DNA of 22,858 nucleotides from Priapulus caudatus (Eukaryota; Priapulida; Priapulimorpha; Priapulimorphida; Priapulidae). Below the pieces are notes generated by a model. The model did not search any database, was not told the DNA's origin, and saw only the letters and a program-made list of their open reading frames with translations. The translations under genes and the position numbers were made by a program. The stretch covers positions 13,145 to 36,002 of the forward strand of contig NW_014578050.1 of assembly GCF_000485595.1 (NCBI RefSeq), given 5' to 3'. Below, in pieces: positions 1-22,789 of the stretch. Numbering within the stretch: the stretch's first letter is position 1; each line of letters starts with the position of its first letter.

Positions 1-83
1 CGCCCGCCGCCCCGCTCTCTCACCTCCACGAGTCGCCCCATTCCTCCCTCCCTCGCCCGCCGCCCCGCTCTCTCACCTCCACG
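1..83. repeat. 53-bp tandem duplication across a 5' splice site
   Basis: Bases 1-30 are identical to 54-83, giving a 53-bp period. On the minus strand each copy reads CGTGGAG|gtgagag, seven exonic bases followed by the donor of the hydrolase GHSIG exon. The authentic donor starts at 76 and the duplicated one near 23. The array touches the window edge, so it may have more copies. Confidence 0.85.
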
Positions 84-2612
84 GTATGTGTCCGGTGGGA
101 TTCATGAAGAAAGCCGACTCGACGGGGAGACCTGGCACCCGAGCAGCGGCAAACAGCAGCACGGGGAAGGAGCCTATGCTGTGACCGATGGCCATCGCAA
201 CCCTGCGCAGAACGGCCGCAGGTTACTGACAGAGAGCGAAATTTACGGGTCTTATGCTCCTCGAGCAACGAAGAGGATTAAGTGAGTACAGAAGGACAGC
301 GAAGAGGACTATGAAGTAAACGGTGGAGTCCTATGGGATTAGTGAAAAGGAGAAAGACACATCGCCATCCCTAGCATGGCTTTTCCTGCTTGCTGACAGG
401 AAAGATAGCTTGACCGAGCTACAATAGTCATGTCACATGTGCATTTGAACATGTATAACATGATGTGCCTTACCAGAAGAAATGTCCAGACTTTTACTTT
501 GACAGAAAGTTGGCAGCACAATTCACACATTGATAACTTCTTTTCGACCAGAAATAAACCAAATTTTTAGCCAACCTCCAGGGAACAAATCTGCAGATAC
601 TGAGCTGTTCATAAAACAGCTATGAACATCGATAAAAAAAAAACAAAGAAAATCCATTTCAAAATCATCGCTTGATACCTCTTGATTTTGAGGGCACCTA
701 GTAAGTCAACGATCAATTCAACCTTTTCCGGAATAGAATGCTGGAAATACCCGTCATCATCCATGTCCGTGAAGCCGTAACCTGTCACACAGAAATCACC
801 ATCTCAATTCCCATGTTTGCAGCATTTCATGTACACAACGACGATATCGAAGGACATCACCTTATTCCTATCCCTAACACAACCCTAACCGAACCCTGTT
901 CCTATCTGCAACTCTAACTTAACCGTAACAAAAACCATAACCTAACCGTAATCCAAACTTAACTCTAAACCGATCTTTAAATGAAAGTGTCAATGACACT
1001 GTAGCTCACCACAAATAACGTTTTTATAATATTCAGATTTAGGCACTGCCTAAAAGCGGAGCTCCCGATGTGTAATGTGTAAGATTGAGAGGATACGCTT
1101 ATTCCACGTAGCTGCTATGTACCACGTGACAATGGTGTTTCCCTGCCCATAACACAACTTTTGTCAAAGGTTAATTGGTTGCATGGAAGTGTTTACTTCG
1201 TATGAGTTTTTCTAGGCGGTAGCACACGGTTGCCATCTGTATATCGCAATAATAATTTATAAACCAAAATGAATCACAATTTGTGACAGTAGATGGCGCT
1301 ATACCCGCTTTGTAGCGATGGCGTTCGAAATAAATAGGTTATGCTGCGTTCCGACATGTTTTGTAAAACTTTACTCTAATATAGACGTTTTATCGGCAGG
1401 GTGAAAAGGAAATACCAATTTTGCATTAAAGATATTGTCAATGAAATCTTGTAAAACGAACCAGACGAGTGTGACACCACAGACTGTTTGTTATCTGCGT
1501 TTTTTGCATAAATTGCATAAACCTATCTAATTTGCATAATTTTTTTTTTAAATATCAAAACCCCTAGCCCTTATTCATTCACATACCAAAAATGAGCAAA
1601 ATCCGTTGAACCTGAACTGATTAATGGCAATTCCCATTTTTGCCAAAAAATTGCCGTGGCTCGAAAGTACGTCGACTGGCGTGCTCCAAAATATGACGTT
1701 CCATATGGGAGCATAGCAGTAACAACTATACCCAATTTCAAACATGTGGGTAAAACAGTTCTTGAGTTATCGTTGACCGAAGCGAAATGTTGACGGACGG
1801 ACGGACGGACGGACGGACGTACGACGGACGACGACCCATGGCAATAGCTCAGCTTGACGATGTCAAGGTGAGCTAAAAATGGGGCACGAAAGTTAAGCTG
1901 AGCCTGCACATACTGTCGCCAATCAAAATTGCAATAATTTAAACTCCTCCCATCCGTGTTACCTGGGAAGTTTGGCACTATCACGCGTGCATGGGGTTCC
2001 AGCTTGTCTACCAGTGGCAGGAAGCCCATGTGAGAGCCGGGAGCGCCGTGTACCAATATTATAACAGGTTTTTTCAGGTCCTCTGTCGTGTTGGCTGAAA
2101 TATGGAAACCAAGGGGCAGAAATTACAACGACTTCTTTGTAGAACAGTTACATCTATATACAGACTGAAGATGTATTCAAATAAAACTTAAACATTTATG
2201 ATTTACTTCAAGAATTCATATCGGAACCTCCTGAATACACATGCATTTTGCAATCCACGGTTTACTCAGGAAGTTGTATTCATATCTGATTTTCTCAACT
2301 GATATCTTTTTCATGCAATTACTGCTTGACCAAGCCAATGCATGGCCATTCTGGCACAAGTTCAATTGCAGTATTCTACTTGATTCTTGGAGGATTATAC
2401 CTGTATCAATGTAGGAAACCATCAAGTTGGCACTGACGCCAACGTATTTGGAACTGGACCAGTATTCCGATACACGACTGTTCTCATTCTCAGACAGTTC
2501 CTGGGATACGGCATTGTTCACAGATGCGTAAACTCCTTGGCACGTCTCCAGGTACTGGTACTGTAGCGGATATTTGTCTTTTAGATCTATTGATGTTTTT
2601 GTGCACATGGAC
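77..2612 (-). CDS. Alpha/beta hydrolase fold protein, 3' end outside window
   Basis: Four exons on the minus strand join in phase: 2612-2401 (ATG at 2608), 2094-1963, 781-679 and 202-77. Each has an AG acceptor and a GT donor (gtataa, gtaaca, gtatca, gtgaga). Numbered from the ATG at 2608, a strand ending VSYIDT leads into VIILVHGAPGSH (HG oxyanion region, about residues 80-91). NFPGYGFTDMDDDG follows at about 111-124, then AIGHSIGS, a classic nucleophile elbow with Ser157. About 191 residues are visible; the acid, the histidine and the C terminus lie beyond the left edge. The HGxPGSH and NFPG pattern resembles the metazoan hydrolase family once called DUF1057; the substrate is unknown. The exon acceptor at 2612 leaves one base before TCC-ATG, so either ATG 2608 is the start after a 5'UTR intron or a coding exon upstream was missed. 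The final donor is duplicated by a 53-bp repeat. The fold is well supported; the exact start is not. Confidence 0.8.
203..678. other. Hydrolase intron, no recognised element
   Basis: The 476-bp intron between the exon ending in KIKR and the AIGHSIGS exon. Both ends are GT-AG on the minus strand (gtatca at 678; gcgcag at 203). It is AT-rich, and I recognise no repeat or exon in it. Confidence 0.6.
782..1962. other. Long hydrolase intron: telomere-like and GGAC repeats
   Basis: This is the 1,181-bp intron between the NFPG exon and the YGFTD exon. At about 862-970 it holds a degenerate array of CCTAAC-, ACCCTAAC- and CCGTAAC-like words. At about 1794-1826 there is a GGAC tetranucleotide microsatellite with a GACGACG tail. 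Several ATTTGCATAA words lie near 1505-1545. I see no coding exon here. The open frame reading leftward from 1963 is only read-through of the donor. Confidence 0.6.
2095..2400. other. Hydrolase intron, no recognised element
   Basis: The 306-bp intron joining the exon ending in SYIDT to the exon starting NTTEDL. The donor is gtataa and the acceptor tttcag on the minus strand. The G left by the donor side plus CC from the acceptor side completes an alanine codon. Confidence 0.6.
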
Positions 2613-2636
2613 CTGTAAAGTAAAGAGATGGCTCTG

Positions 2637-3225
2637 CAGGGCTCGAATTAACCGACGGCACCGACGGCAATTGCCGTCGGTGCCCCTATCAATTGCCGTA
2701 CTGCCCCTGAAAATCCAACTCGACCGACGGCAGTCACCTGCCTTGCCCTTTTGTGTAATTGCCGTCGGTGCCCTTTAATCTACTGCCCTAGTTTCGTTTT
2801 TAGTCGAATCAACATAACACGTGCGCGTGCGTGCTGTAGTTGCAATGAGCTTAAAACCGATAGTCGCAGGAGGGAACAATAACAGCATCGGATAATTATT
2901 CACTCCTGATAGCGGGCATATAAAATTTATTGTTACTGTACTTCCATTAGCAGAGGGGGGTACAAGGGTCGGTGTTACGGTGTAAGCTTACATGGGGGCA
3001 TATTGTTTTGTACATTAAAAGCAAGACGATGTTGATGTACTAATTTGTTATGAGTTTTCCTTTATTTTACAAAAGTGCCTTGGTGCCCTTCTCAAATTTT
3101 GAAAGTTGCCTTGGTGCCTTTTAAAATTGCCTCTGTGCCCTTCCATTTTAGAGAAAATTCAAGGCGATTTCTCACGTGCCCTAAAAAAATTGCCTTGCCC
3201 TTCTCGCCGCTTAATTCAAGCCCTG
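2637..3225. mobile_element. Non-autonomous hAT-type MITE, 589 bp, 8-bp TSD
   Basis: The ends are imperfect inverted repeats: CAGGGCTCGAATTAA at 2637 and, on the other strand, CAGGGCTTGAATTAA ending at 3225. The element is flanked by a perfect 8-bp direct repeat TGGCTCTG at 2629-2636 and 3226-3233. CAGGG-type ends with an 8-bp duplication are characteristic of hAT transposons. The interior is rich in TTGCCNNGGTGCCC-like words, which look like subterminal repeats, and contains a 28-bp perfect palindrome at 2657-2684. No transposase frame is present. It lies 16 bp upstream of the 3' splice site at 2612 on the minus strand. Confidence 0.93.
2657..2684. repeat. 28-bp perfect palindrome inside the MITE
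   Basis: The left arm GGCACCGACGGCAA is followed directly by its reverse complement, with the axis between 2670 and 2671. Related single arms recur near 2728 and 2758. It is probably part of the subterminal repeat region of the hAT-type element. Confidence 0.9.
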
Positions 3226-3436
3226 TGGCTCTGTATCAGTGTATGAACAGAGAAATTAATGGTCGCTAGCACAGTAGTAACCTCGTAACCTCCTAAGTAG
3301 TATTAGTCTTGAAGCCCAATAAATTATACAGAAGATGGACAGAGTCAAAGTTGATTAAATCGATAGAGCAACACTGTGGATTGCACTAGAAGTTTCAATT
3401 TTACAATTAAGCAAAGAACTGAGAAGAAATCAGCAA

Positions 3437-3650
3437 CAAACACTAACAGTAACAGTCAGTAACACTAACAATAACACTAACAGTAACACTAACAGTCAGT
3501 AACACTAACACTAACAGTAACACTAACAGTAACACCAAGTTAACAGTCAGTAACACTAATAGTAACACTAACACTAACAGTAACATGAAGTAAAACTAAC
3601 AGTAACAGTCAGTAACACTAACACTGTCACTAACAATAACAGTAATCAGT
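3437..3650. repeat. TAACAC / TAACAG hexanucleotide array
   Basis: About 210 bp of mixed TAACAC, TAACAG and CAGTCAG words with a mainly six-base period and a few interruptions. It is a simple-sequence array with no coding potential. Confidence 0.85.
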
Positions 3651-4283
3651 ATACGATTAACACTGTGCTGGCAATCATCGACACGGTATAACCCCGTGTA
3701 ATGAGACTGCCGTTAGCGATAGAGCACCTGACTTACCGTTTACCGAACCCGATGATTCGTGGACAGTTCCGATTATGTGAATTGTGTAGAAGAACATCGC
3801 TTTTTTTCACTACGAAACTGCTATACCAACGGTTTACAGTCGGTTTATGCCTTTTGCATAAATTATGTGTATATAGATTACCTACTTGAAGACGTAAACC
3901 GATCCTCAATTGCAAAAACCGAGCGAATTGCATCGTACGTGTATATTTATCAGCTAGAACTAGCACATTTCAATCCAACTACAAATTAATAACGAAAGCG
4001 TGTATGTTCACGGGCAGCGCCATATTGCCTAGTTAGTAGTTGCCAATCAGCGCGTGTACCGCCACCTAGTAACGTAATATTGAATAGTTTTTTAGAAGAA
4101 AAATTGTGAATATTTTATAGAAAAAAATAAAACAAAAATTGCATTTATATTGAACCAGGAGTTGATAAATACAATCTGTTTGATACAGTGTGGTACCCGG
4201 CAGGACTGCCAGACGACAGCTAATGCAGTGTCTGTCCTCTACCTTGACCATCTTGACAGAGAGCACTGCTCGTCTTGCTTCAC

Positions 4284-4295
4284 TGCGCATGCGCC
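4284..4295. promoter_or_regulatory. NRF1-like site
   Basis: TGCGCATGCGCC fits the palindromic NRF1 consensus YGCGCAYGCGCR. It sits in a locally GC-rich patch between two divergent genes, where a bidirectional promoter would be expected. Use in vivo is inferred. Confidence 0.5.
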
Positions 4296-5070
4296 GGCGC
4301 CCAAAAGTTAGTAGACGGGTACCCGGTCTCACCTCTCGGCTTAGGAGTAATCGAGTAATCGAGCTCTCGGCTCCCATCGAGTAATTGAGGTGGGAGCGAA
4401 TACCAGTCTAGAAAGTTAGGGAACCAGCTTTGGGAACCAGTCTACTAGAAGTGGGCGCGCAAATTTCAAAACAGCATAACGTTTCATGTCAGAGAGCTAC
4501 AGACTTGCGCGATTTTGCGGTAATTTTAATTTATATTTTATAGTTTAATGGCAGTGAATACGGCTAGAACTCAGCTATACAGCTCTAGAACTATATCCCT
4601 AGCCTGACCTCAGCGAAGGGCTATACTTATAGTTTAACTATCAGTTCAACTTCTATAACTACTCATGCAGTACAATCAATAACTATTATTATTATTTTAT
4701 TATTAATATTATATTGCAACATCCACGGAGTGAGGTTATTGTAATTTGTTATTCAATGTGTACTGTGTACACTGTATACTGTATAGTCACAGTGTACGTG
4801 TCACTGACGCAGCAACATTTAATGCCAACGCTAATGTATTAATTATTCATGTGACCACCCACATGTCTGATACTATCAGTATCACTATTAACCCGACCAG
4901 GCTGTGTGACTAACGTCAATACACCAATAAGGGTGTATACACCAATTAGAATACCTAGGGGTATTCTAACCCTAGCAATACCGTTTCCTGGAGCTATATC
5001 ACTATCAGTATCAGTGATAGTATTTTGGTGTTTTTCCCAGCAGCTAGTTAACGACTGCTAGATCATCAGC

Positions 5071-8000
5071 ATGGCTATGCGCATTGCCAGGCGACGATCG
5101 CTTAGACCGCTTACAATACCAAGAAGAAGGCAGGACACGGATGTCACTGATGTAGCGCAAGCCGGACCTAGCGCAGACAGTGACTGCTGGGAAGATGTGG
5201 AAATCTGGGAAGCAAAATGGTAACAATTAAGATCAGAGCTCTGTGCTGCACACTATAATGCACTGTACCATCATCTACTCTAAATGTGACCCTAACGATG
5301 ATCATAATATGACAAGTCAATCATCCAAATAATAATTATTAGGATAAATACTGATGATACCGTTCAGACACCCACGCGTAGCTCAACACGCATACCCTCC
5401 CCCCCCCCTCACCGTTGCCGCAGGAAGGGCTACACACGTAGAACTAACTCGCACGATGTGAACTCGGGCTGATTGCATCGCGATCCACACTTGACGTAGG
5501 TCTTCGGCAAACACGAGTGAGGTGCAGCTGAACTGCTCTAGCGTCCTGGACGCCGCCGGCTGGATCACGACCTCCGACCTCCACCGCCCCGTAGAGTCAG
5601 CGCTCGCTTGGTGCCAGACCAAAGTGTCCGAGGTAAGCGCGAGACCGTCCCCTCGCTCACGCCTTGTTCGCTTGCCGAAGGTCGCAGAGCGGAGTCCGAC
5701 GCATCGCGGGCACGTGCCGAACGGGTCACGACTGGGTGCACTGCTCTAGCGTAGTCTTGGGAGTGTCGAGTGTTGTAGTGGGACTAGCTTGGACCGTGGG
5801 CTCTCTTCTCGACTGGTGCTATTCGCTAACGGCCTCGGTAAGATGTGGGACGTACAGTCGACGATGCGGGGCGCTTGTAGATACTGCTATTTAGTAATGC
5901 TCGTATTTCGAGGTTTCCCCTTCACTTCGTTCTTGGTGTGCATTAGAAAAGATGTGTCAGATGTGAGCAATCAATGTATTAAGACTCATTTAATGCCAAT
6001 CGAGCTCGCAGGTACGGTACAAAAACATGAACTCTAGATGGTTTATTTTTGGTACTACCAATAACACATTTTTACAATCCATACAATGCTATACAATTTT
6101 GTATAGATATGTTTATGGTATTGCATACATAACGAAGTACAGATGATTTTGCACTCTGAGCTCACATTTTAGTTTCACCTTTCAGGCGTGGAATGCCACC
6201 CAACAAGTACTTTTTCCATCGACGCGTTACAAGAGGGACCTAGATGATGCCATGTCCAGAGTTGAGCAGCTAGAAATAGAGCTACAAGGCTTGAAAAAAC
6301 AGAAGCTTGATCATGAGGTATATATACATGTGTATGCGCACACACATACACATGCATGCACGCAAGCAGGCACACTCACACTTGTGTATATATATATAAA
6401 TATATTTATATTCCATCTATGATTACAGCACAGCTAGACTGCGATGCTTTAGGCTATATGTCAGGACCATGGTGTGTGTTGCAACTGTTTTCAGGTAGTA
6501 TCTGCAAAGCCAGACCACCAGTACTGCGAAAAATGCGCGGGACATTTGGCTGGTCATTTGCCGCAGGCTGCATGTGTAGGGGCAGCTCCTCCCCCTCCTC
6601 CTCCTCCTCCTCCTCCTCCGAAAGCAGCTCCACCTCCACCTCCTCCCCCACCTCCCCCTGGCAAGTTGAATTCATCAAAGAAGCCTGTGATCAAGAAGAG
6701 CAAGAAGGTATTTATTTGTTTTTGAGTCTTGTAAGTCTAATAAATGCCGATTTAGCGCCTTAAAAGTAAACTCCATTTGACTAATGAGAGCCCAACCAAA
6801 TATGAACTAAACGTCGATGCCTGGTGTAGTGGATCTGAGTTTGCTATGACGGTCTCCATGGTTACAGGCAGAGAAGCCGGCAGCTGCGAGTCTGCCTTCG
6901 ATAAGCCTGGACGACATCAAAAAGGTCAAGCTGAAGAAGAGGTCGCCGGCGAAAACCGCTACTCCCGTGAGTTCGCTCATCATCTATGTCCCACTTGTCG
7001 AGCACCCAATTATGCACTCAGTTTCCTCGTGGGATGGATGTTTCACTTAGCAGTGTAATTAAGGGCCCATTGTCAGAAACATTAATAGTAATGAGTATCA
7101 TCAGTGTAAAATGCCCGACTTTTACACAACAGTTCTCTGGAAAAAAAGCTGTGACATTTTCTTCTCGTGATGTCGTAAGAATTTACGACATATCTGACAA
7201 TAGGCCCCTGAGTGACGCGACTCATTCCCTAAATAAGCTACGTTATCGCATGTGACGTCACCTCGCGTCCGTCAACCCATCGTCTTCGTCCCGTCGTTAT
7301 ACGTACGTCGAGCCCGCCACGTCCTTCTCCACGCGTGCGGCGGCAACTGATGCGCCACCTGGTGTTGTTGCAGGGCACGCCGGAGGGGAAGCTGCGCACG
7401 CCCCTCATTACGCTCGACGCTCTCCGCTCCGTCACGCTGAAGTCGTCCGAGAAGAAGCGCCGGTCCGTCGGCCGGCGCGCCTCGAAGGAGAATGGCGGCG
7501 GCGGCGACTTCCGCAGCGGCCTCAAGCGGTCGCGCGTCGATCGGTGAGTAGCGGGAGGGGGAGGGTCGATCGGTGAGTAGCGGGAGTTTGAAGGGTCGAC
7601 GTGAGTAAGCGGATAGGGGAGGGCGAATCGGTGAGTAGCGGGAGGGAAGGTTCGATCGGTGAGTTAGTCGGGAGTGGAGGGTCGATCGCGAGTACTGCGA
7701 GGGGAGGGTCCGATCGTTGAGATAGCGGGAGGGGAGGGTTCGTCGGTGAGTAGAGCGGGAGGGGGAGGGTTCAATCGTGAGTAGGGGGAGGGAGGGTCGA
7801 TCGGTGATAGCGGAGGAGGTGGTCGAGTTCGGTGAGTAGCGGGAAGAGGAGGGTCGCTCGTGAGTAGGTGGAGGGGGAAAGGGTCGATCAGGTGAGGTAG
7901 GAGGGGGGAGGGGATGAGGTATATGGAGGGTCGGTCGTCAATCGATACGTGAGTACTGGGAGGGGAGGCGATCGTGATAGCGGGAGGGATGGAGTATAGG

Positions 8001-9512
8001 AGGGGATAGGGCGATCGTGCAGTAGGCGGGAGGGCAGGGTCATCGTGAAGTACGGAGGGGATGACGTATAAGAGGTTGGTCACACATCATCTACTAGCCA
8101 GGAGGCGAAGGGTCGATTCGGTGAGTAGCGGAGGGAGGGTCGATCGGTGAGTAAGCGGGAGGAGAGATCGGATCGGTGAGTAGCGGGAGGGGAGGGTCGA
8201 TCGGTGAGTAGCGGGAGGGGGAGGTCGATCGTGAGTAAGGCGGGAGGGGAAAGGGTCGACCGGTGAGTAGGGGGGGAGGGTCGATCGGTGAGTAGCGGGA
8301 GGGGGAGGGGGTGGAGGTATAGGAGGGTCGGTCTTGCATCAATCGGTGAGTAGCGGGAGGGGGAGGGTCGATCGTTGAGTAGGGGGAGGGGATGGAGGTA
8401 CAGGAAGATCGGACACACGTCGATTGGTGAGTGGGGGGGAGGGGGCGCAGGAGGGTCCGTCTGCACGACCGCCCACGGTCGAAGTGATGGGGAACGCGAA
8501 AATATCTGGACGATACCCACACACGTCTGGTGGATCTCGAGCATCACCACCCATTCTTGAGTGTCCTTGCCCATCCTCGAGAATCCCCGTCGGCCCCGGC
8601 GACGTCATTCATCTCGCTGCCTATCCTCTCATTGTTGCAGGAGCCCGGGAGGAACCCCGCTGAAGAGGAACGTGGAGGAATGCGGGGAGGGTCTCACACC
8701 GACGATGACGCGTGCCTTGAAGAAGAAGTTCGAGGTGAGCGGCAGCCGTGTTCGGTGAAGGAACCCTCGGCATGGCCCCGACCTCTTGAATTTCCAGCCA
8801 ATAACTAGAGTCAAACCTGCCCGAGAGTCGACGTCTCCTTAGAGTGGATGCCTGTCTAGAAAGGATGCGTTTGGCATTCTCTCTGAGTGACTGTTATAGA
8901 GTGAAACCAGCTCGATAGAATCGAAACCAGTCTATAAAAGATACCTCTCAGAACCTGTTGAGTAACCCTTACATACATGTTTCACTGTAGTTAGTACTGG
9001 TTGCAGTGTTATATAATAGCTATATAATAGTTGTAGTTAGTAGCCAGTTAGCTAATTCTTAGCTAGTGGGATTTTATCATATATCCATGTATGGTATGCA
9101 CGTAGGCACAATGCCACATCGCCTCCCATCGACCTGCGCAAAATTCTTTCCTTAAAAAATCGACGAAACGTCGAGTCGCGAAGAATTCTCCGTGTCGCGT
9201 CCTCACTCCCCGCCATCCGGAACATTCCAGAACACGAAGACCCCGTCGCCGAGGGACCTCACGTCAACTTCCCCGACCGACGACGGGTTCCAGGATTTCG
9301 ACGACATTCCGACGCCGACGACGAGGAGGTCGGACGCGCGACGCTCCGGGGGGAAGCCCAGGAGAAGGTCTCACTCCCTGCTGAGGAGGTCCATCGGGAG
9401 GCAGTCTCCGGGGAAGCTGGTGGCGGCAGGAGCTAAGGGCGGGGACGGCGACGCGTCGGCTCGGTGGTCCGTGGCGCCGGATAGTCTGAACCAGGTTGCA
9501 CCTGATATGTAG
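5071..9512 (+). CDS. PRR11: PRR11-like proline-rich protein (nine exons)
   Basis: Exons: 5071-5219, 5500-5632, 5688-5837, 6186-6317, 6495-6707, 6868-6966, 7374-7543, 8641-8734 and 9231-9512 (stop TAG). All junctions are GT-AG and in phase, giving 473 residues; human PRR11 has 360. The N terminus is basic (IARRRSLRPLTIPRRR). A Trp-rich region (GWITTSDL, LAWTVGSLLDWC) is followed by a short coiled coil (about 160-188) and Cys199/Cys202. Proline runs are at 220-230 and 234-243. Next come ISLDDIKKVKLKK (about 270-282), LITLDALRSVTLK (about 303-315), RSPGGTPL (349-356) and GLTPTMTRALKKKF (366-379). The last four correspond in order to vertebrate PRR11 motifs. PRR11 is linked to G2/M progression and actin/Arp2/3 in vertebrates; that role is only inferred here. 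Many SP/TP sites suggest proline-directed phosphorylation. ATG 5071 has a good Kozak context (A at -3, G at +4). Exons 1-3 are less certain than 4-9. Confidence 0.85.
5838..6185. other. PRR11-like intron 3, no recognised element
   Basis: A 348-bp phase-0 intron with donor gtaaga and acceptor tttcag. It is AT-rich towards its 3' end, and I recognise no repeat in it. Confidence 0.6.
6967..7373. other. PRR11-like intron 6 carrying a small MITE
   Basis: A 407-bp phase-0 intron (donor gtgagt, acceptor ttgcag). Its centre is a short inverted-repeat element at about 7063-7207 that has a relative in DRG1 intron 2. Confidence 0.65.
7063..7207. mobile_element. Short MITE, GGGCCNATTGTCAGA ends (copy 1)
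   Basis: The left end GGGCCCATTGTCAGA (7063-7077) matches the reverse complement of the right end, GGGCCTATTGTCAGA (7193-7207), with one mismatch. The interior (TAGTAATGAGTATCAT, ACTTTTACACAACA) resembles 16443-16590 in DRG1. About 145 bp, non-coding. No target duplication could be fixed. Confidence 0.7.
7536..8440. repeat. Minisatellite built from the exon 7 5' splice site
   Basis: About 900 bp of variants of a roughly 28-bp unit, GGGTCGATCGGTGAGTAGCG followed by GGAGG. The first copy is the authentic exon 7-intron 7 junction (GTCGATCG|gtgagtag, donor at 7544). About a dozen later copies keep the donor word GGTGAGTA, for example near 7569, 7629, 7828, 8144, 8172, 8200, 8284 and 8342; others carry single-base indels. 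A longer interspersed unit containing GGAGGTATAGGAGGGTCGGTC recurs near 7916, 7987, 8305 and 8390. The array fills most of the 1,097-bp intron 7. The proline-rich open frames on its minus strand are artefacts of the repeat. Confidence 0.9.
8735..9230. other. PRR11-like intron 8
   Basis: A 496-bp phase-0 intron, donor gtgagc and acceptor attccag. Other acceptors upstream in the same open frame (from 9156) are out of phase, which favours 9231. The segment at about 8808-8960 (AGTCAAACCTG, then TAGAGTGGATGCC) looks like a decayed repeat of the AGTCAAACCTG type. Confidence 0.55.
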
Positions 9513-9590
9513 ATGGTTAGGCAGAAGACATCTGTACCAGGTGTGATGTCGAGATGTGGTAACTGGTTTATGATGTTATTCTCATAAATG

Positions 9591-9614
9591 CATATATATA
9601 TATATATATATATA
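9591..9614. repeat. AT dinucleotide microsatellite
   Basis: About twelve TA units in the presumed 3'UTR of the PRR11-like gene. Confidence 0.85.
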
Positions 9615-9963
9615 ATATGTATGTAACAGTTATCTTCCTCCTGATATGTGCACTTCTAGCTGATCTAGTGCTTTTCAAGAAGTTACTGAGCTACAGGAAT
9701 TTTACAGGGCCTAGTTGTTATGTGAGGAAGATATATGATACCGGTGTGAGTAGGTATAAGGAATACGTAGCAGGGTACTAACAAATGCATGCAGAAGGAT
9801 AATCTTTTATTTTGGTTGCTGGATCAATCAATTAATGATAGGACCGTAATTGTAAGGTTTTTTGGCTGATGTCGTTCGAGTGACGTATGGAAATCACGTT
9901 TACGTCTCTTTTCGTTGGGTAATTATACAATTACATGCATGTGACTGTACTGTGTGTACAGTA

Positions 9964-9969
9964 AATAAA
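9964..9969 (+). terminator. Candidate poly(A) signal of PRR11-like gene
   Basis: AATAAA lies 452 bp after the stop codon in AT-rich sequence and is the first canonical hexamer I see on this strand downstream of the stop. Cleavage position unknown. Confidence 0.35.
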
Positions 9970-10284
9970 TGTTTTACCTACCCTCTACCCCCATGCATAC
10001 ATGCTTGTTTAATGGAAGGAGCTAACACCCCTTACCTCACGTACATTTGTGATTTTTTAACATTTTATTGTTTTGATTTTACGTCTGCATATATATATAT
10101 ATAGTTGCATTCGTTTTTATAATCCTACAGCTTTAAATTAATTTGTAAATTAAATATTAAAAATTATTAGTGGGAAACTAGAGTAACTGTAGTAAGTGAA
10201 TGCGAACTACTGCAGAAAATAGATCACTAGTGATATATTTGTGGTTATATACAATATATATGTAGGGTAAAATTGTTATAGTGA

Positions 10285-10879
10285 TACATATTATCAAGAG
10301 TAGATAATAGGAGAAGAGTATGACATCGTTTTAACAGCGTTCTGCATAGTTTTCAAATTGTAAATATTTTATCAATATGATATATTCAAACTTTACCTTG
10401 TTTTCGTCTATGATTCTCCCTTATTCCTTAATCATATGACACCACCAATTTTCCTAAAAATCGTATGTGTTCTTTGAATACGACATGGTTTCAAGCAGTT
10501 TTCACGAATGGACGCATGTGTTCGGCGAAAGTTTATGCCAAAGTTATGCGACGGCAGCACCAGGTTGTAACCAAGATACAAGATAGAGAATAGAACACTA
10601 ATCCCATAAATGATAATAAACTTTCACCGAACACATGCGTCCATTCGTGAAAACTGTTTGAAACCGTGTCGTATTCAAAGAACCTTTTTGAAGAACACAT
10701 ACGATTTTCAGGTAAATTGGTGGTGTCATATGATTAAGGGAGAATCATGGACGAAAACAAGGTAAAGTTTGAATATATTTATTCACATATTGATAGAATA
10801 TTTACAAGTTGAAAACTATGCAAAACGCTGTTAAAACGGTGTCATACTCTTCTCCTATTATGTACTCTTGATATTATAC
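10285..10879. mobile_element. Foldback element, about 250-bp inverted arms
   Basis: The left arm (about 10285-10536) and right arm (about 10615-10879) are near-perfect reverse complements around a 78-bp spacer. Matched landmarks include TATCAAGAGTA at the ends, GGAGAAGAGTATGACA, ACCTTGTTTTCGTC, CATATGACACCACCAA and CGAATGGACGCATGTGTTCG near the centre. There is no coding frame. This is the structure of a foldback MITE. Exact ends and target duplication are unclear (TA-rich flanks). Confidence 0.85.
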
Positions 10880-11494
10880 AAACCAACGTCTGAATTATGC
10901 TCTGTACTTGATCATGTAATATATTACATAAAAGTCAATGCAAAACACGCTGTTTTTGTCTCGATATAGAATTGATTTGCAAACTCCAACAGATGCATGA
11001 AAAAAATGATGCCTTTTATTAGTGGCCGAAAATACAATTCCGCATGACTGACATTTCAGCACCAGGTTCAAAGCAGCATGCGCAATGATAAACCTCATAA
11101 AACCCTATAAATAACAGTACCACGAACATATGTACGCTACGTGGGTTATCACCAGCATGTAGACAGGACTTGGGGTCGACATGCTCTTGATATTACGCAG
11201 AGTATGTATAGACAGCATCAGGAACAAATAATCACACATTTTTATTTGCGATTATTTACTCCCGACTATACATATATTCGTGATTGCAGCTGGGACATAA
11301 GTATGACCACGCGCCATAGCTGTCTCCTATTCTCACCAATTTCCTATAAATTCTCGGCCGTCGTCATTCTCAAGATAAACGAATCCCCCCAAAACACACT
11401 GCAATTCACGCAATACTTGTCACGCACAAGCGTCCGATTTAATCTCGCACCTCAAACTGTTCGATTCCCGCCTAAAACAGAGAGAACACGAGCG

Positions 11495-11640
11495 TTCTTG
11501 TATAATTTCCCCAGTACACTTTAGCACACAACTTCCTGATAACATACTGTCTGGCCAACCTAGACTGTCATATTATCCCAGTAAGGATCAGGACTACTTC
11601 ACATGCCATATACAGTCAAACTTGTATACGACATACGAGG
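11495..11640. repeat. Dispersed repeat fragment (copy 1)
   Basis: Shares TTCTTGTATAAT, CTGATAACATACTGTC and GGCCAACCTAGA, then ATACAGTCAAACTTGTA, in the same order and strand as 14245-14400, with visible divergence. Probably two copies of an old transposon. The family is not recognised. Confidence 0.55.
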
Positions 11641-12356
11641 GCTGTATAAAGAAAATCCCAAAAGTCCTTCACAGACAGGCGTTCATGCTACAGCGTAGAA
11701 CAGGATGGTTGCATTCAGGAAAACAATATGCACAAGTATATTAAATTCTCCAAAAATAGCGATTGGAGATCGGTTGATATATCCTGTCTCAACAGGGCTG
11801 CTGCTTGTCGATGGAGATGGAAGAAGCTGTACGTTTGTAACCAGTATATTGCATGTACACGTGCGCAGTATATTGCCAACTGCAGTAAATCCCTCTGGCT
11901 TCGCCCAGCAACTTCCTTCGCGCTAATTTAATAACCGCAGAAACGACGTATCTTGTCCTACTGAGAAAGACAACTGCACCACCTTTGGATGTTTCCGCTA
12001 TTTCGGTCAAGACAATCCGATTTGCATGAGTTTTCGGCCAAACTCGACTGTGCCGATTTAGGACGTAACGACGTAACGACGGTTGGCCGAAGCTGGCGGT
12101 CACTCACGCCAGGAGGGTAGGTCAGTTCGGAACCCGGATAAAAATGCCCGCTGAACACGCGCATCATGACGCAAACGCAAACGAGCAACGCACGGCGTAC
12201 GACGCTAACATCGCCCCCCTCCCTCATCCCTCCTCCCCTCGCTGCTAGGTTGTATGTACAGCATCTCAGACTGAGAAACACCCTGCGCCGCTGCGACGTA
12301 ACGGCCGAGCGACCTTGACGTGACCTCGAACGCTGCACGTGTGACCTTGACCTTCG

Positions 12357-13720
12357 CTACTTCTTCACGACCTGCACGACATCCTCGTCTTCCAGCTCGT
12401 GCTCCTTGCCGACCTTCTGCGGATTGTGCTTCACCGACGAGCCCCACACGAGGGCGCTGCAAACACACGAAAGAGAGACGTGATCGCAGGCTTGACGACT
12501 AGGACGGGAGGAGAGGCGTGACGCCGGACAGACGCTCCCCCACGACTCGCGGTCGACGGCGTGGGAGAGATTTGCGAGCATTTCGCTCTCAAATATAGAG
12601 TCAGTCGTCGTTCGTTACGGTTCAGTGAAAAAAATACACGGGGGCTCGGGGCGATTTAGCCCCCGAAATGCCAAAAAGAGCCCCGGAAATGCCAAAAAGA
12701 GCCCCCGTAAATTTGCATAGAGTTCAATGCAAACCAAATTTTAGAGTGCTGTTTTCATGCACGCAAGCTTGAAAAGTAGCCCCCGAAAAATAAATTTTTA
12801 TTTTTTCCCGTTACGGTTACATATTTCTAGTCGAGAAGTTATTTCGGCGTGTTACTGTAATTGGCACCTCGACTTCACACGAAACGAGACCTCAACGCAG
12901 GACCTCAGTTTTGCCATGTGATACAAATCGTTCAGTGACATATCAGAGATGCGAACATAAAAAAATCGACAATGCTTGTCAGCTGACGGCTTGATAGAGT
13001 CGATGTTGACATGGCACTAGCGGTGAAACGGCCCCGCGAAGCTTCTCAGCTCGTTAGCAGTTAAACGATGGAATGAATGCTCACTATTTGAACTCCTTCA
13101 TCAAGTTTCTGTGAAGCTGATTGCAGAAGTCCTCTATGGTTTTCTTCTCGTTCTGCAGAACGACGGGAGCGTTGTAGTCGGGAAGCTGTCCTTTTGGCTT
13201 TGTGTAACTGTGAAACACCCGACAATGAATTAGCCATAATAAAGATATTGTTTGTTTGCCCTCACCCGACCGATCCGCCAAAACGGGGGCCGACTCAAAC
13301 AATTTTATTGATCTTTCCCATTCTTTTTTTTTTACAAATTGTATCACTGTACAAATCTGTAGGCAATACATTATGTACCAAGCAAAACAAACATTCAACA
13401 TAAAAGGTATCTCCACACAAGCACACCCGAGTATGTAGACACCATGCTAAATTAGTAAAAAGACCCCCTCAAAAAAAATAAAAGCCTACCTACCTACCCA
13501 AACTTTTCAGCCTGGGTCGGGTGAGGGCAAACAAAGATTTTTTTAATTGTGGCCTTAAATATTATCACGTCACTATTATACACTTCATTATCAGTCATCG
13601 AAGAGAGGAGGGTGTGTGCATGTCAGTCTGCATGAGAGTTAGAAACAGAGCAGAGTGAGAGAGAGGCAGCAAGGAAGAGAGAGAGAGAAAGACAGAGAGA
13701 GGGGAAGGGAGGGAGGGAGG

Positions 13721-13778
<58 letters not shown>

Positions 13779-16700
13779 CTGCAGAGAAGCACATTTCACT
13801 CACATGCGGCACAGATTGAGGTATTCCCACATCTTCTCCAGCAGGTCGTCAAAATTCCACTTGTGATGAGCAGATATCGGCACAGTATGTGGGATCTTAT
13901 AGATGATATCAAGCTCCTAACACAGACAAGTCAAACTTATAGATGATATCAAGCTCCTAACACAGACAAGTCAAACTTATAGATGATATCAAGCTCCTAA
14001 CACAGACAAGTCAAACTTATAGATGATATCAAGCTCTTAGCACAGATAGATCAAGCACAACACTTCACTCGAAACATTTCCACACCACCCCATCCGCACT
14101 CGCCCTGAAAAATTTCGCTCGTTCCCAACCAAAGAATAGGAAAGACTTGAGAGAAACAATCGAAAGGCATCTGTCTGCCACACATCAGTAAACAGACTAC
14201 ATGAATCTCCCAGACTCTACTCTTCGCAAGCGAGTCGATTGAGATTCTTGTATAATCACCTCAGTCTAGAACATGACCTTCCGATAATATGCCGTCCGGC
14301 CAACCTAGATGTTCGTATTTATGCCTGTAAGAACCTACGTCACATCCCTATAATTCTTTACAGGCAACAGCTTATACAGTCAACCCTGTACATAATGGAT
14401 AGGGAAAGGGAAATGAAAGAGAGATTCGATGGACGATGCGGCGAGGCGTTACCTCGATGGAGATCTGGTCGATCTTGTTGAGGATGTATATGCAGGGAAC
14501 GTAGATGCGGTTGCCCTCGACGACGTCGATGAGGTCTTCCGACGTGCTGTCCTCGCTGAAACACGATCACGCCACCACAATCAACGCGCGCCACAAACCG
14601 CGTGGTTTTTCCACCGCAAACATCCGCTGCATTAAGAAGCAACTGCATTAAGAATCAAATCTCGTCGGCCGATCTTCGTCGAGTAATCGCACTGCGAGAC
14701 TGTCGTACTAGGACAAGCGGCTGTTCTATAGAGGTGGTTTTAGTGTATAACTGCCACTAAAGGGAAATGTCAAGTGTCTTCTACGTGTGTGGACTTTATA
14801 GTCCTTTCTACAGAGGTGCCTGCTAATACATGACTGCTTGACTGTATATCTATTCTATATATATGAAACCTATGAAAAAATTGTAGCGTCAGACAGTCAC
14901 GTGGAAGACACTATGAATTAACCGTCATACCGTAGAGTGATATCGGCATTGTGCAGCTTGTATTCGCTGAGAATTGTTCGTACCAATTCTAGATCCAACT
15001 CCGACTGCACTGTCTGTGAGTGAAGCAAAGAATCACAAATCAATCAAGTTTTCCATACGAGCACAACAGCAATAATACAGAGAATCAAAGTACATCATAC
15101 TTCACCGATACGCTCACGAGCAGAACCAGGATACCGAGTCAAAGTCACAGTCCTCGCCAAAGATGGCAGATCGATTCGCGACACCATCGTATCGGCAATA
15201 ATTTCGGACTTATCGCATAATTAGATGACTTCACACCACTTCCACAATTATCACATTAATGCCGCCCTTGTTTAAGTGCAACTTTGACTTTGCGTAACTT
15301 CGTCACGAAGCATTTTTAGAATGCCCGCATCAAAACGCTGACTGGCAAGAGCTCTAACCGCCGATTGTTACCGGTGAGTAGCATCTCACGCGGATCGTGT
15401 CACAACCCACCATGACGTTCAGGTTAATGCCGCCCTTGTCCTTCTTCTTGAAGTAGATGTTCGGCGGTTTCTTGTTGAGACGAATTCCGAAGCCTTCGAG
15501 CTCGTGCTCGATGAGACGCTTGTGTACGAGAGGCTTCAGCACATCGAGAATGATGAAGATCAGGCTGCAGGTGCGTGCGACTGCGAGCAGGAGAACGAAG
15601 CACCGCGTCAACACAACTTCAGCGTTAACGAGCGCGCACGTCGCTCTTACCACGTCATTGGATCGCGTTACCTAGCGTCCGGGCTGACACACGATAATGT
15701 CACATTCTTGGTGACGTTTACACCTATTGTATTCGTTCATTATTTTTATTATTTATTAGTATTTATAATTGAATCATGATCGTGTTAGCTAGCATCCGTG
15801 CTAATACACAACATTGTCACATTCTCGTTGACGTTTACGTTTGTCGTATTCGTTCATTATTGCTTGTTATTTATTAGTATTTATAATTGATTCATGCTCG
15901 CCTGATTCTACATTCATCTCTAATCTATCTAGGTGCCAAAAAATTCGTCAGAGATTGTATCAGGGAAAACACTGTGCAACACTTACAGTGTGGTGCAAAA
16001 GTTCTATGAGAAAAATTTAAGTTACCTGCTATGACCTGCCTGCCTCTGCCCTTTCCATCTTTGGCACCTTCGATGATACCTGGCAGATCCAGCAACTGAA
16101 ACGCATATATATAATTAACACTAGGATAAGGTTATCATCGAAATAATCCGCAAAATATAACAATAACAACGCGCTCAATCGCTCTCTCAGCAACAGCTCT
16201 GCACGGCTGCAGACCAAACGTTCGTCACACCCGCCCGCGTGTTCGACTCGCGTCGAGGAATTCTCGGTGCCCTGCTCACCTGCACTTTTGCTCCCTTGTA
16301 CTTGATCACTCCCGGAACGGTGGTGAGTGTCGTGAACTCGTACGCGGCCACCTCGGAATAGACCCCCGCGAGATTGCTCAGCAGTGTCGACTTGCCGACC
16401 GACGGGAAACCTACGAGGACGGATGAGGTTGCCACGGAGATCAGGGGTCCGTTGTCAGAAACATCGCGAGTAGTTATTACTATCATGAGTCTAAGCGTCA
16501 TTACTTTTGCACAACATTTCATTTCCAAAGTTATGATGTTTCAAACTTATGATGTCATAACTACTACTGCTTTTTCTGACAACGGCCACGTAACTTTGAA
16601 ATTCCCCAACCTTTCCTCCACATTTCCCTAATCCAATTTCAATTTGCACTGACCAGTTACACAATGAAAGCATGCACCAACAACAAATAATAGGCTCCAA

Positions 16701-19700
16701 CCACCCCTCACAGCTATCTTTTTCACTGATATTAATAACAAATAATTATTATATAAACTGTTAAAACTCAATATTTTTTATTTATATTTATGGGAAACAA
16801 TTTGAGAGAGATTTGCGAATAACCACTTATTTTCGCCTGCTTGAGATTACTATTACCATTGTAATTATTATTATTATTATTATTTTGATGTTAGAAAGAC
16901 AACAGCACTTCGTAAATAAAAAAATAAATTTCAACAGTTTTATGCAGCCACTATATATAAGTTTGACAATTATAAAACATCTTAAAACAGTATTTTGTGG
17001 TAATCTTCTACACAGCTAAACCGAGGAATTTTCTGAAGATTCACACCTGTACGTGATCACAGGCACTTGGAACATCACAATAAAAAAAATTATGGTAAAT
17101 AAAGAGATCTTTTATTCGTTGTTTATGCACAGCGGCGAGCGTGCGTTGTACTCGTGTGTTGCATAGGAGCATTTGAATGGCGTTTACAAGAAGTTATCGG
17201 CAATAATAGGCGAACTAGAGTAGAGAAACATTACAAGACTTTGGTGGTAAATACATTTCGTGTTTATGACGTACCATTATTTTTTTTATTGAGACGTTCC
17301 AAGTGCCTGTGTACATGATAGCCTACGTTGGTATAATTCCTCACATATACATGTATGCAACTTGGGCTTACACACTTAACACCTGCTATTCGCACCTACG
17401 AAACCGATTCTAGCATCTCCTGTCTTGGCCACGTCAAATCCCTCTCCGGCACCGCCTCCTCCTCCCTTTGGTGTGATGAGCTCTCGTCGTAATTTCGCTA
17501 AGCGGGCTTTCAGTAGACCTAGATGAGCGCTGGTGGCCTTGTTTCTTTGAGTTCTGGCCATCTACAGTACAGCGTAGTACAAACAGCATGACCAAACTAA
17601 AAAAACCTACACAACGTAATCGTTATGTTTTTCCTTATGTGACCTTATGTGGCCAATAGTGGCTAAAATCGTTCCGGAATAATTAACTCCAACCCCCTGT
17701 GTGAATACAAAACGGTAATGTGTGAATGCAGTCAGAACCGAGTTTACGGACTTGCCAACCCTGATTGATCATAGTGTCACTATTAGTGAGATTACAAGAT
17801 AAGTTTCGCCGATCTGACAATGCATGTCACAGGCACTTGGAATGTTTCAATAAAATACAATGCTAAATAAATATGAAATCTACTTACTACCAAAGTCTTA
17901 ATGTTTCTCTCCTCTCTTTCACCTATTATTGCCGACAATTTTCTGTAAATGCCGTCCAAATGCTCATCTGCAACACACGCTGGCTGCCGCACGCTAGCTG
18001 AGCTGCACACTGACACATAATTATATAGCACTGAGCAGGTAGGAAAGCGTGCTGCCAAAATTCGCTCGACGCTCGCTTGATTTCACGCGAATACAACACA
18101 AACATTCAACCATTCCACTCCATCTTTGTTTCTATTTGAAGAACAATGTTCACTTGTTATAAAAACATACTGTCTGTGTTCGTAACCGAGCTGTGTCACG
18201 AGAAATCACACAAAGCCTGATGAAATTCTCGCGTTCGCTCCTGTTTCGCAGTTTATGTAAATGGCTGTCGGAATCAGGAAACACCCAACGGCGCTCTTCG
18301 TGACCTCATTTTTGCGCCACATCCACGCATCATTTTTGCAACGCTCCACTGGCGGCTTTGATGAGGCTCGTACGGGAGTTGGAAAGCAGCGTGGTAGTTT
18401 CCCAAAATGCAGTGTGCCGCCTATAGCCCTGTACTTGCAGCCATTTACATAAACTGCGCAACGGAAGCGAACGCGAGAATTTCGTCCGGCTTTGTGTGAT
18501 TTCGGATGACACAGCTCAGTTACAATCACAGACAGTATGTTTTTATAACAACTCCTTCAAATAGAAACAAAGATGGAGTGGAATGGTTGAATGTTTGTGT
18601 TGTATTCGCATAAAATCAAGCGAGCGTCGGGCGAATTTTGGCAGCACGCTTTCCTACCTGCTATATATTTATGTGTCAGTGTGCGGCAGCGAGCGTGCGG
18701 TGTACATGTGTGTTGCAGATAAGCATTTGGACGGCATTTACAATTACAGGAAATTGTCGGCAATAATAAGTGAAAGAGAGTAGAGAAACATTAAGATTTT
18801 GGTAGTAAATAGATTTCGTATTTATTTAGCATTATATTTTATTGAAACGCTCCAAGTGCCTGTGATGCATGTGTTCGAATCAGAACGTGCCAAATCTACA
18901 CTGCCACTGGCGCTGCCTACTACTACTAGTACTAGTAGTAGTACAGCCTACAGGGACTACAGTCTACATAGCTCCAAGAAATGGTACGTATTGCTAGGGT
19001 TAGAATACCGTTTCAAATTCTTGCCCATAAAAATGTGTAGTTGGCTCGGTATCCAAACATCAACACAGCTATATATGCGTCACATGTAATAGCTCAAACA
19101 AATCTATAAACCTCTGGCTTGCTCGTGGTAACTGGGCGCTACTGATTTATCGAGTTATGCCGTATTTTCTGAGATGAATTGGATCAAAACAACCAGACAG
19201 CCGCCATGTCCGCCATGTTCAGTGCAGCTAAAATCGGCAATGGACCCGATTTTCACAGTGCGTAGGCCTAAACACAAGGCAAGTACATATCTTCGCAATG
19301 ATAATAGATCGCGTTGTTGTAGATTGATGTCCTGGTTTTCAATGTTTTAATATTTATATATATATACGACGCGATGCTTATTTATGCTCGCGCCAACGCG
19401 AGTTGCAACGCTATGTTTTCCGCGTTCCGATCGAAAAGCATGCGCATTGGAAACATTTAACATGGGGGTTGGCGGTTGGTTGAAATTTCGGTTCGGCTCT
19501 TGAAATTTACACTGTGCACAGCGAACTGAGCATTAGTTTTAATAACAACGCTGGACTACTATAAGGTGAAGGTTATACTTGATACAAAACAAGGCAGAAA
19601 TGCTTAGATGATCATTTTATTTGAAATATACGTAATTGTTCGGTAGTTCTTGTAGAGGTACACGATTTTCTAATGGATGGATGTCAGGCTGTATATTGAC

Positions 19701-20307: not shown

Positions 20308-20425
20308 ATGGGCGGAGGGAAAAAAGACGAGAAGTCGGCGCACACTAGCTGCTCAGCAGAGGTTCAGAAGTGTGAGCAAGAAGAACAGCCGGTCGAAACT
20401 GGGACAGTAGCAGAAGCAGCGACAG
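20308..20425 (+). CDS. Candidate first exon, unrecognised protein
   Basis: ATG 20308 has a strong start context (AAC before, G after). It opens 39 codons plus one base: MGGGKKDEKSAHTSC then a Glu-rich stretch ending TVAEAAT, followed by donor gtatta. The MGGGKK start has the Gly2 needed for N-myristoylation but a poor downstream context for it. A possible second exon starts at 20628 after ttgcag in matching phase and stays open to 20846, but its protein (RYGWSLSL, then VICCIVRHNQ) matches nothing I know. The head-to-head position with DRG1 and the promoter motifs between them favour a real gene. Not identified. Confidence 0.4.
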
Positions 20426-22789
20426 GTATTATTGTAATCCAGTGTTGCATAACATGCGTTATAACTTATAAGCTTGTAGTTACGCGTGGGAGCCTTACTT
20501 GTACGTGTCGGAGTGAGTGCGGTACGTCACGATGATCTGGTGTTTGTTTTGTAATTCACTGAGTTAACGACCACGTCTAATGACATTTTGGAAAATTAAA
20601 AACCATTGACATTGTTTACAAGTTGCAGGTTGCGACTTTGACGCTAAACGTTACGGTTGGTCGTTGTCGCTGCAGTGCGCCTTAACTTTTACATATAAGG
20701 AGAAAGCACAGTACACGGGTGTCATATGTTGCATTGTCCGTCACAACCAACCGGCAACACGGTCACCTGCAGAGGCTGTGGGCCAGAAAATGCAAAATTC
20801 ATCAGATCTGTCTGACAAAAAAACGGGTTTTGACGTGCAGGTCTGTTGAATTCTACTTGGATCATTATCCAACAATGTTTTTTCCTACAACTTGTCACTC
20901 GGCGTTCTTTACCTGACGATAACAATGGCAAAAAATCAGTGGGTTGAGCACAAGTTGGCTCAATGCTGAACCTACTGTCCGGCGGATTGAAACGAGATTT
21001 CGCATTCCCTATTGTGAGTACTGTTTCAGTTTCAGCTCTAATTTCTGGCAGCAAATCTGAAGCATTAACGGTGGGGGGGGGGCTCAGTGTGTATAGAGTG
21101 TGTGCATTTGGGGAATGGTGAAAGCTTGAACAGCTAAGTTATAATGTAGGTCAGCATATATATATGCTCCAGTGAGTAAATAATGTGCATGGTGTTATGC
21201 AATTGCATACGTTGTTATCGCTATCAGTTTAGTTATCTATACAGTTGGATATTTTTCTTTGTTTCATCAGAAACATGATATATGCTGTGAGCATATTCTG
21301 GTATGAAAAGTGCAGAGCATTGTATAATTTTTTTGGCTACCAAACTCACTGTGTGTACATTTAAATGCCTGGTCCTAATTTCAATTCTAAGCATAGCAAT
21401 GCTTTCTTCATCATCTTTGAAGTTTACACATACTATTTTCACACCCTACAGTGACTGTGTTCACCTAGCAGGGTCAAGTCTGAAGTAAAGGCAAAAACTC
21501 CAGGTTAAGCAGGAGGTTGGCCATCATATTGTACTGTGATTGCAATGATTGGTGTGCATCTACAGTCTCGGTGCAAAGTTAGCTTTGTTTGCAAAGTTGC
21601 TAGGTTCAGCTCTCAGTCTTTGTTTCCTAAATTGCGGCATTTTAAAACCGGTATGCTTCCATGCTACAGTGACGCCTTTGTATTTTTTTAAATAAGTTTA
21701 CATTTTATGGTAATTACATATAACATCACATATATATATACATTATTGTGAGATGGCTGAGGTTTGGTCCATAAAAAACATTCTGCAGTAGAAAAATTCT
21801 GCTCCAGCCTGCTGTATTTCGCAGCCTGCTGTATTTCGGAAGGTCTCAATATCTCGTTCTCTTTCAAAACCTAAAGCTGGGAAATCTGGAAATTCACATC
21901 CGACCATGAATGCTGAAGGTTATATTTAGGGCCAACCAACGTAAGTGCTGAAGAAGTGAGGTCATGCCGATATATAAAAGGCAAACAAGTCGCGTAATTC
22001 CTTAAAACAATTTGCAGAATTGAAGTCCGTCGACACTCACTTGGTTAGTAAGGGTAATCACGGGAGCTGGGGGTGGGGGTGGGATGGGCTTGTGCGTCAA
22101 ATCTAATTAATCGTTTAATTGCTTATCAGGGAGAGCGCTAGTTACCGTTACTTAGTCGCTGTTTGTACAGCCCTCTTCCCCGCCTCTCCCCTTCACCACC
22201 ACAGGCATGCTGCTAAGTGGCGGTGGCTGGCGTTCACATTGTCGCCTGTGCAACAAGGAAACACTAACGTCAGTTGACCGTGTACCTCATGCATGTTGCC
22301 CTCGAGTTACGTGGTTATTAGTTTAGCTTGCAGTGTCGATGACTCCTGTAGTGCAGTGCCAGAATCAGTAAAAACTGTAGGCTGTAGCCATTCGTAAGGT
22401 TAGGGCTGAGGTGACAATTTAGTAAATTCTCGTGTTAAAAAAGGCGCAGTGGTGAAAGGTGAGCAGGGTTCACATGGTTTCTTGCAATAAGGGAGCTCCC
22501 TCAGCAAAGCTTGGACAGCCTAACAAGAAAATACTGATTTATGATTGGCGATTAAAAAGTTTTTCCCCAAAAAAAGTTAATAGTGCATACTGCATAGTTT
22601 CTATTAATTTTCTGGCAGCAGATCTGAATGTCTCGGAAAAGTGTAGATATATATATGCTAATCCTGGCGTGACTTTTGCATGACGCTCCACTTGAATAGT
22701 TTGGCAATATGCCTCTCATCCATAATCGCATAATCTCAGAGCGCGGTGGAATCTACTGCTCGTGCTGTGCATGGATTTCACACTCTCCA
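20426..22789. other. Presumed intronic DNA, no supported exon
   Basis: AT-rich sequence with short open frames only. Near 21041 and 22608 the phrase TTCTGGCAGCAAATCTGAA / TTCTGGCAGCAGATCTGAA occurs twice in direct orientation, possibly two ends or copies of a repeat. A run of G lies at 21071-21081. Nothing else recognised. Confidence 0.5.

What the first reader, a model, noticed from the sequence alone, without database searches (positions are those of the whole stretch)
1..14055. Splice-junction minisatellites in all three recognised genes of one locus
Three independent arrays with unrelated sequences and unit sizes (53, about 28 and 40 bp) each span an exon-intron boundary, two donors and one acceptor. 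Chance placement would put most arrays wholly inside introns. Minisatellites over intron boundaries are known from amphioxus ('mirages', recalled, not checked here). The density suggests a genome-wide process, such as boundary-targeted breakage, replication slippage linked to splicing, or a step in intron birth and growth.
Basis: partly seen in the sequence, partly recalled or inferred. Interest (0 to 1): 0.9.

Follow-up and report, generated by a model that had tools for sequence, protein, structure and literature searches.

The report
Minisatellites over splice sites in priapulid
In the penis worm Priapulus caudatus, short DNA stretches that include an intron edge are often copied several times in a row; in the genes examined this happens at intron edges about as often as inside introns, probably because the working splice site next to the exon is kept.

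Summary
The three arrays are real. The window is Priapulus caudatus. A 53-bp array covers an inferred hydrolase donor, a 29-bp array the PRR11-like exon-4 donor, a 40-bp array the DRG1 exon-7 acceptor. In the two complete gene models only the exon-proximal site gives the known protein; 21 other donors and 3 other acceptors give early stops. Three hits among 17 arrays is not above chance (rotation mean 2.4, P=0.45): 10.6% of sampled genome is tandem array. In nine CCT/HSP60 genes, picked without regard to repeats, 8 of 80 junctions lie in a spanning local duplication, against 573 of 6495 intron windows and 2 of 501 exon windows. So boundary arrays are common, and no boundary hot spot is needed at loose similarity. 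At high identity junctions exceed introns 2.4-fold in these genes, and two donor words pair in tandem more often than pooled control words, though not significantly more than the nearest decoy. Selection on the working copy may explain part. Best reading: amphioxus-like mirages in another phylum, made by undirected tandem duplication and filtered by splicing.

The parts
1..83 (-). 53-bp donor array, at least 1.6 copies, bordered by N at the window edge; unit = 7 nt exon end + 46 nt intron of the hydrolase gene
   Evidence: sequence; exon and donor; N to the left; TRF does not list it
77..202 (-). hydrolase exon (GHSIGS motif) whose inferred donor lies in the 53-bp array
   Evidence: P0126 100% identical but ends at this donor
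7374..7543 (+). PRR11-like exon 4 (counting from my exon 6186-6317 as 1; exon 6 of P0121); its last 8 nt are the start of the repeat unit
   Evidence: P0121 100% identical over the query
7536..8391 (+). 28-29-bp donor array, about 27-30 units, unit GTCGATCG|GTGAGTAG...; a further degenerate copy near 8427
8641..8734 (+). next PRR11-like exon (acceptor side of the array-bearing intron)
13804..13916 (-). DRG1 exon 7 of my 9-exon model; its first 21 nt (ELDIIYK) are part of the repeat unit
   Evidence: P0001 100% identical
13896..14046 (-). 40-bp acceptor array, 3.8 copies, 98% matches; three copies end their intron part in TTAG, the outermost in TAAG one base later
   Evidence: one place found in the genome
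12357..19823 (-). DRG1 (GTP-binding protein 128up) gene: 9 modelled exons plus a first coding exon 19823-19782
5071..9512 (+). PRR11-like gene, 8 coding exons; the first two placed by eye against P0121
77..2612 (-). YNR064C-like alpha/beta hydrolase gene, 4 exons seen, 3' part in N

Best explanation
These are mirage-type minisatellites. P. caudatus carries many local tandem duplications in non-coding DNA. When a duplication happens to span an exon-intron junction, the copy next to the exon still joins to the exon and the extra copies fall into the intron, so the event is nearly neutral. A duplication inside a coding exon is mostly removed by selection. Junctions therefore show about the intron rate of duplication, while exon interiors show almost none. 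The exon-proximal splice site stays under selection, so junction copies remain more alike than intron-interior copies. Shown: array anatomy, exon-proximal site in two protein models, the rates in the genes examined. Inferred: the mutational step (slippage or unequal exchange), near-neutrality, and the choice of the exon-proximal site in RNA.
For: Random sample: 84 arrays, 10.6% of 99,763 readable bases, against 3 arrays and 0.08% after first-order Markov resampling. Nine CCT/HSP60 genes: junctions 7 of 79 with a spanning duplicate within 800 bp (score >=18 of 45), intron windows 363 of 4193, exon windows 2 of 501; ratio 1.03, bootstrap 0.65-1.56; with the N-rich locus kept, 8 of 80 against 573 of 6495. 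Window genes: 2 of 39 junctions, 135 of 1244 intron windows, 3 of 189 exon windows. The profile rises from 0 of 572 at 31-75 nt inside exons to 24 of 240 at the junction, 34 of 240 at +16..+30 and 120 of 926 at +61..+120, without a sharp peak at the junction (loose threshold). All 8 junction duplicates score >=28 against 270 of 573 intron ones, as expected if one copy is constrained. Non-proximal sites give early stops: 21 donors and 3 acceptors. The DRG1 array was found at one place only (that search skips very common words), which fits an origin in situ.
Against: At strict similarity junctions exceed introns 2.4-fold in the nine genes (8/80 against 270/6495; nominal p 0.02 with overlapping windows, threshold seen afterwards); the window genes do not show this (2/39 against 91/1244 at score 25). 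Donor words in tandem pairs 20-50 bp apart: 291 pair starts in 4096 occurrences against 33 in 3933 for four control words; by locus at least 53 of 4096 against at most 22 of 3933, p 0.0007. Halved divergence predicts only about 1.55-fold for an exact 9-mer. A mild excess of high-identity duplicates sits at +6..+30 (11/160 and 21/240 against 40/926 and 61/1479 further in).
Confidence: 0.62

Rival explanations
1. Tandem duplication is born preferentially at functional splice sites, for example through co-transcriptional R-loops or microhomology around AG|GT.
For: Strict-similarity excess 2.4-fold; CAGGTAAGT 86 pairs against 4 for its mirror, CAGGTGAGT 205 against 4, with single counts 1808/1165 and 2288/932; high-identity duplicates 11/160 and 21/240 at +6..+30 against 40/926 and 61/1479 further in.
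Against: No excess at loose similarity. A decoy word without the GT also pairs often (19 pair starts, 8 loci, of 934), and neither donor word exceeds it significantly by locus (24/1808, p 0.35; 29/2288 as a lower bound, p 0.37). Of 25 donor-pair loci fetched, 10 flanks were scanned and 2 gave a Pfam match over its cut-off, so many donor-pair arrays may not lie at coding exons.
Confidence: 0.2
2. The arrays are intermediates of intron birth or growth by tandem duplication of AGGT (Rogers model) or dual-specific splice sites.
For: Described in print (passages of PMC3443670, and PMC10809524); the hydrolase unit contains AGGT.
Against: All three arrays lie at one end of an intron whose other end is ordinary or unseen; the DRG1 unit reads AG|GAG and the PRR11-like unit CG|GTGAG at the junction.
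Confidence: 0.08
3. The extra splice sites are kept because they regulate splicing, for instance poison isoforms.
For: The donor hexamer is among the best kept parts of the PRR11-like units (93-100% per position); every internal site tested gives an early stop.
Against: The three sequences are unrelated and lie at both kinds of intron end; the rate in other genes equals the intron background. The alignment behind the hexamer count trims ragged ends and was anchored on the unit consensus.
Confidence: 0.05
4. Assembly artefact: copies made by gap filling.
For: The 53-bp array runs into N; the PRR11-like array is indel-rich (17%).
Against: The DRG1 array and the 28-bp array of L025 are clean (98% and 96% matches); units carry exon sequence joined to the right intron; similar cases occur in other genes.
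Confidence: 0.05

Closest known systems
Amphioxus mirages (Adh3, globins BflGb6 and BflGb9, TnC, PGBD5)
   Same: Tandem repeats over 5' or 3' intron boundaries, units of tens of bp, many units with splice signals, normal splicing reported (passages of PMC3087553, and PMC3902484).
   Different: Here in a priapulid (Ecdysozoa), measured on 80 junctions of nine genes with an intron and an exon control; no data on polymorphism or RNA.
Intron gain by tandem genomic duplication (Rogers model; PMC3443670, passages)
   Same: Tandem duplication that carries splice signals and can be spliced away.
   Different: Here the arrays sit at ends of introns, and two of the three units lack AGGT at the junction.
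Dual-specific splice sites in tandem repeats (human UBC; PMC10809524, passages)
   Same: Splice signals repeated in tandem.
   Different: There the repeats delimit coding monomers; here they are mainly intronic and only the exon-proximal site gives the open frame.

Membership tests
Mirage (boundary minisatellite) | Tandem repeat spans an exon-intron boundary | tested here: met
   three arrays in the window; more in CCT genes
Mirage (boundary minisatellite) | Both 5' and 3' boundaries can be affected | tested here: met
   2 donors and 1 acceptor in the window; donors and acceptors in the CCT genes
Mirage (boundary minisatellite) | Unit length in the published range (10-160 bp) | tested here: met
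   29 and 40 bp, 53 bp; range from passages of PMC3087553
Mirage (boundary minisatellite) | Regular splicing is not disturbed | tested here: inconclusive
   predicted proteins P0001 and P0121 use the exon-proximal site; P0126 ends at the donor; no RNA seen
Mirage (boundary minisatellite) | Copy number varies between haplotypes or cells | not testable with these tools
   one assembly only
Intron gain by tandem genomic duplication | Duplicated AGGT at the splice junction | tested here: not met
   DRG1 AG|GAG, PRR11-like CG|GTGAG; only the hydrolase unit has AGGT
Intron gain by tandem genomic duplication | A new intron appears inside a former exon | not tested
   orthologous gene structures were not compared

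The most novel reading that the evidence does not exclude
Functional splice donors in Priapulus are hot spots of young tandem duplication, so that roughly one junction in ten sits in a boundary minisatellite and introns grow from their ends by splice-site amplification; cephalochordates would be a second, independent case.
Probability: 0.22. Interest if true: 0.75.

Novelty: new member of a known kind. Interest (0 to 1): 0.5.

Why it matters
The mirages that I could read about were described gene by gene in amphioxus. Here they appear in a distant phylum, and their rate is measured on junctions picked without regard to repeats. That turns a curiosity into a testable statement about intron ends: they tolerate tandem duplication about like intron interiors, whereas exons do not. 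It also offers natural splice-site arrays for asking how the spliceosome picks one of many near-equal sites, and a place to test intron growth by duplication.

Tried and rejected
Surprise by count in the window: rejected by rotation. Dispersed element as source: the DRG1 array has one place; the same question for the PRR11-like array was asked three times and not answered. Genome-wide acceptor word test: not answered. Open frames beside the 25 donor-pair loci: runs of about 40 open codons are common by chance over three frames, so these readings are not used as evidence; the Pfam scan covered 10 flanks, 2 with a match over its cut-off (fn3 in L046, E1_dh in L052). Rfam: no match in the window at gathering thresholds. 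Bacterial-type promoter scan of 1-1000: not informative here. Literature: among the titles listed (several lists were cut) I saw no paper on boundary minisatellites in a priapulid; only searches carried a priapulid term, and only open-access papers are held.

Dropped rows: one search tested 79 of 80 CCT/HSP60 junctions (one donor of L025 dropped for N) and 39 of 40 window junctions (the hydrolase donor at the edge). Exons that the Pfam search missed, two unclear junctions (the L023 acceptor before the exon at 2642, the second L028 donor) and locus L036 (no junction read) are not in the counts. Family matches at C781 and C28 were not used. Of the 20 random stretches, 5 were all N. In one search the outermost DRG1 copy was tested one base off its AG; one search repeated it at the AG (also an early stop). 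One search used 30 loci for the second donor word; the list holds 29, and repeats the test with 53 in all (52 if one array shared by both words is counted once; p 0.001).

Full report
What it is. The window is contig C990, bases 13145-36002, of an assembly with 385,217,808 bases in 2952 contigs. The species, the priapulid Priapulus caudatus, follows from the proteins: my spliced DRG1 model is 100% identical to a predicted P. caudatus protein, as are six of the eight PRR11-like exons and the four hydrolase exons.

Observation. The three arrays exist and each covers a junction. The 40-bp array (13896-14046) holds the acceptor of DRG1 exon 7 (of my 9-exon model) and the first 21 coding nucleotides. 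The 28-29-bp array (7536-8391) repeats the last 8 nt of the PRR11-like exon 7374-7543 with the donor GTGAGT; 27 units were found. The 53-bp array (1-83) repeats the last 7 nt of the hydrolase exon and its donor (30 identical nt); it runs into N in the held genome, and the predicted hydrolase protein ends there, so this donor is the least certain of the three. For DRG1 the predicted protein uses the acceptor nearest the exon; the three other copies give a first stop at residue 254 or 257 of the 352-residue model. For the PRR11-like gene the predicted protein uses the first donor; the 21 other GTGAG or GTGATAG sites in 7501-8480 give a stop at residue 206 of 329 modelled. These proteins are predictions; I saw no RNA.

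Chance in the window. With 17 arrays (period 8 or more, the 53-bp array added) and 40 modelled junctions, 3 arrays contain a junction. Rotating the junctions gives a mean of 2.4 arrays and P(>=3) of 0.45. The reason is the repeat load: in 20 stretches of 10 kb, 99,763 readable bases, 84 arrays cover 10.6%; first-order Markov resampling gives 3 arrays and 0.08%.

Other genes. To get junctions chosen without regard to repeats I searched the genome for the Cpn60_TCP1 family (matches on 12 contigs) and read nine genes (L022-L035). I placed 80 junctions by eye with recalled human sequences as a guide; a few are only plausible. Spanning duplicates within 800 bp: 7 of 79 junctions, 363 of 4193 intron windows, 2 of 501 exon windows at score 18 of 45; ratio junction/intron 1.03, gene bootstrap 0.65-1.56. 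In the window genes: 2 of 39 junctions, 135 of 1244 intron windows and 3 of 189 exon windows. With the N-rich locus kept the nine-gene count is 8 of 80 against 573 of 6495. Two clear cases flank one exon of the gene in L025 (CCT7 by recalled likeness): a 77-bp array at its acceptor (2.5 copies, 81% matches) and a 28-bp array at its donor (6.6 copies, 96%).

Against this reading. The ratio rises with stringency: 1.13 at score 18, 2.41 at score 28 (8 of 80 against 270 of 6495), 1.90 at score 33 (4 of 80 against 171 of 6495). At 24 of 30 matches a mild excess sits just inside the intron. The window genes show no such excess (2 of 39 against 91 of 1244 at score 25). Genome-wide word counts, pairs 20-50 bp apart: CAGGTAAGT 86 (mirror word 4), CAGGTGAGT 205 (mirror 4), decoy CAGCTAAGT 19 (mirror 6), GATGAACTG 14 in 3 loci (mirror 4). 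Single counts: 1808 and 1165, 2288 and 932, 934 and 902; GATGAACTG singles were not counted, so that word is left out of the ratio. Donor words: 291 pair starts in 4096; four control words: 33 in 3933. By locus: CAGGTAAGT 24, CAGGTGAGT 29 in the first 100 of 205 places, decoy 8, mirrors counted as one locus per match: 53 of 4096 as a lower bound against 22 of 3933 as an upper bound, p 0.0007. Against the decoy alone neither donor word is significant: 24 of 1808 and 8 of 934, p 0.35; 29 of 2288 as a lower bound, p 0.37; if the unlisted half were like the listed one (60 loci), p 0.001. Composition-matched words in the random sample: 153 loci in 28,309 occurrences, 0.54%.

How to reconcile. If junctions and introns duplicate at the same rate but one junction copy is constrained, junction pairs diverge about half as fast. 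That predicts equal rates at loose similarity and an excess at strict similarity, as seen in the nine genes. From 331 intron duplicates the expected gain for an exact 9-mer is 1.55-fold. The word test against pooled controls shows somewhat more, so a modest birth bias at donors remains possible; word composition may also play a part, as the decoy suggests.

Where it stands among known things. Passages of PMC3087553 and PMC3902484 describe the same kind of structure in amphioxus. Passages of PMC10809524 and PMC3443670 describe dual-specific splice sites and intron gain by tandem duplication; two of the three units here lack AGGT at the junction, so they are not filed there.

Noticed in passing
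window 17827-18865: Long fold-back element in the DRG1 intron between 19782 and 17561: nested inverted arms of 108-125 nt, 90-97% complementary; a shorter pair of arms with similar ends (CACAGGCACTTGGAA...) lies at 17058-17311 in the next intron.
   Followed up: partly
window 10350-10815: Palindromic element of about 470 bp downstream of the PRR11-like gene, nested arms 93-96% complementary.
   Followed up: partly
window 6586-6659: CTC and CTCCAC repeats in the exon that encodes the proline runs of the PRR11-like protein: a tandem repeat tolerated in a coding exon.
   Followed up: no
window 13657-13778: GA-rich array that ends about 25 bp from the donor of DRG1 exon 7, not across it.
   Followed up: no
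window 20308-20427: A further gene may start here on the plus strand (MGGGKKDEKSAHTSCSAEVQKCEQEEQ...); not identified.
   Followed up: no
L040 and L041 (G000:C47:135193-138110): Two loci in opposite orientation about 2 kb apart, each with the same readable exon-like end and a donor-word pair.
   Followed up: no
L043 (G000:C249:193801-196124): Array stretch of about 2.3 kb with the CAGGTAAGT donor word in many units.
   Followed up: no
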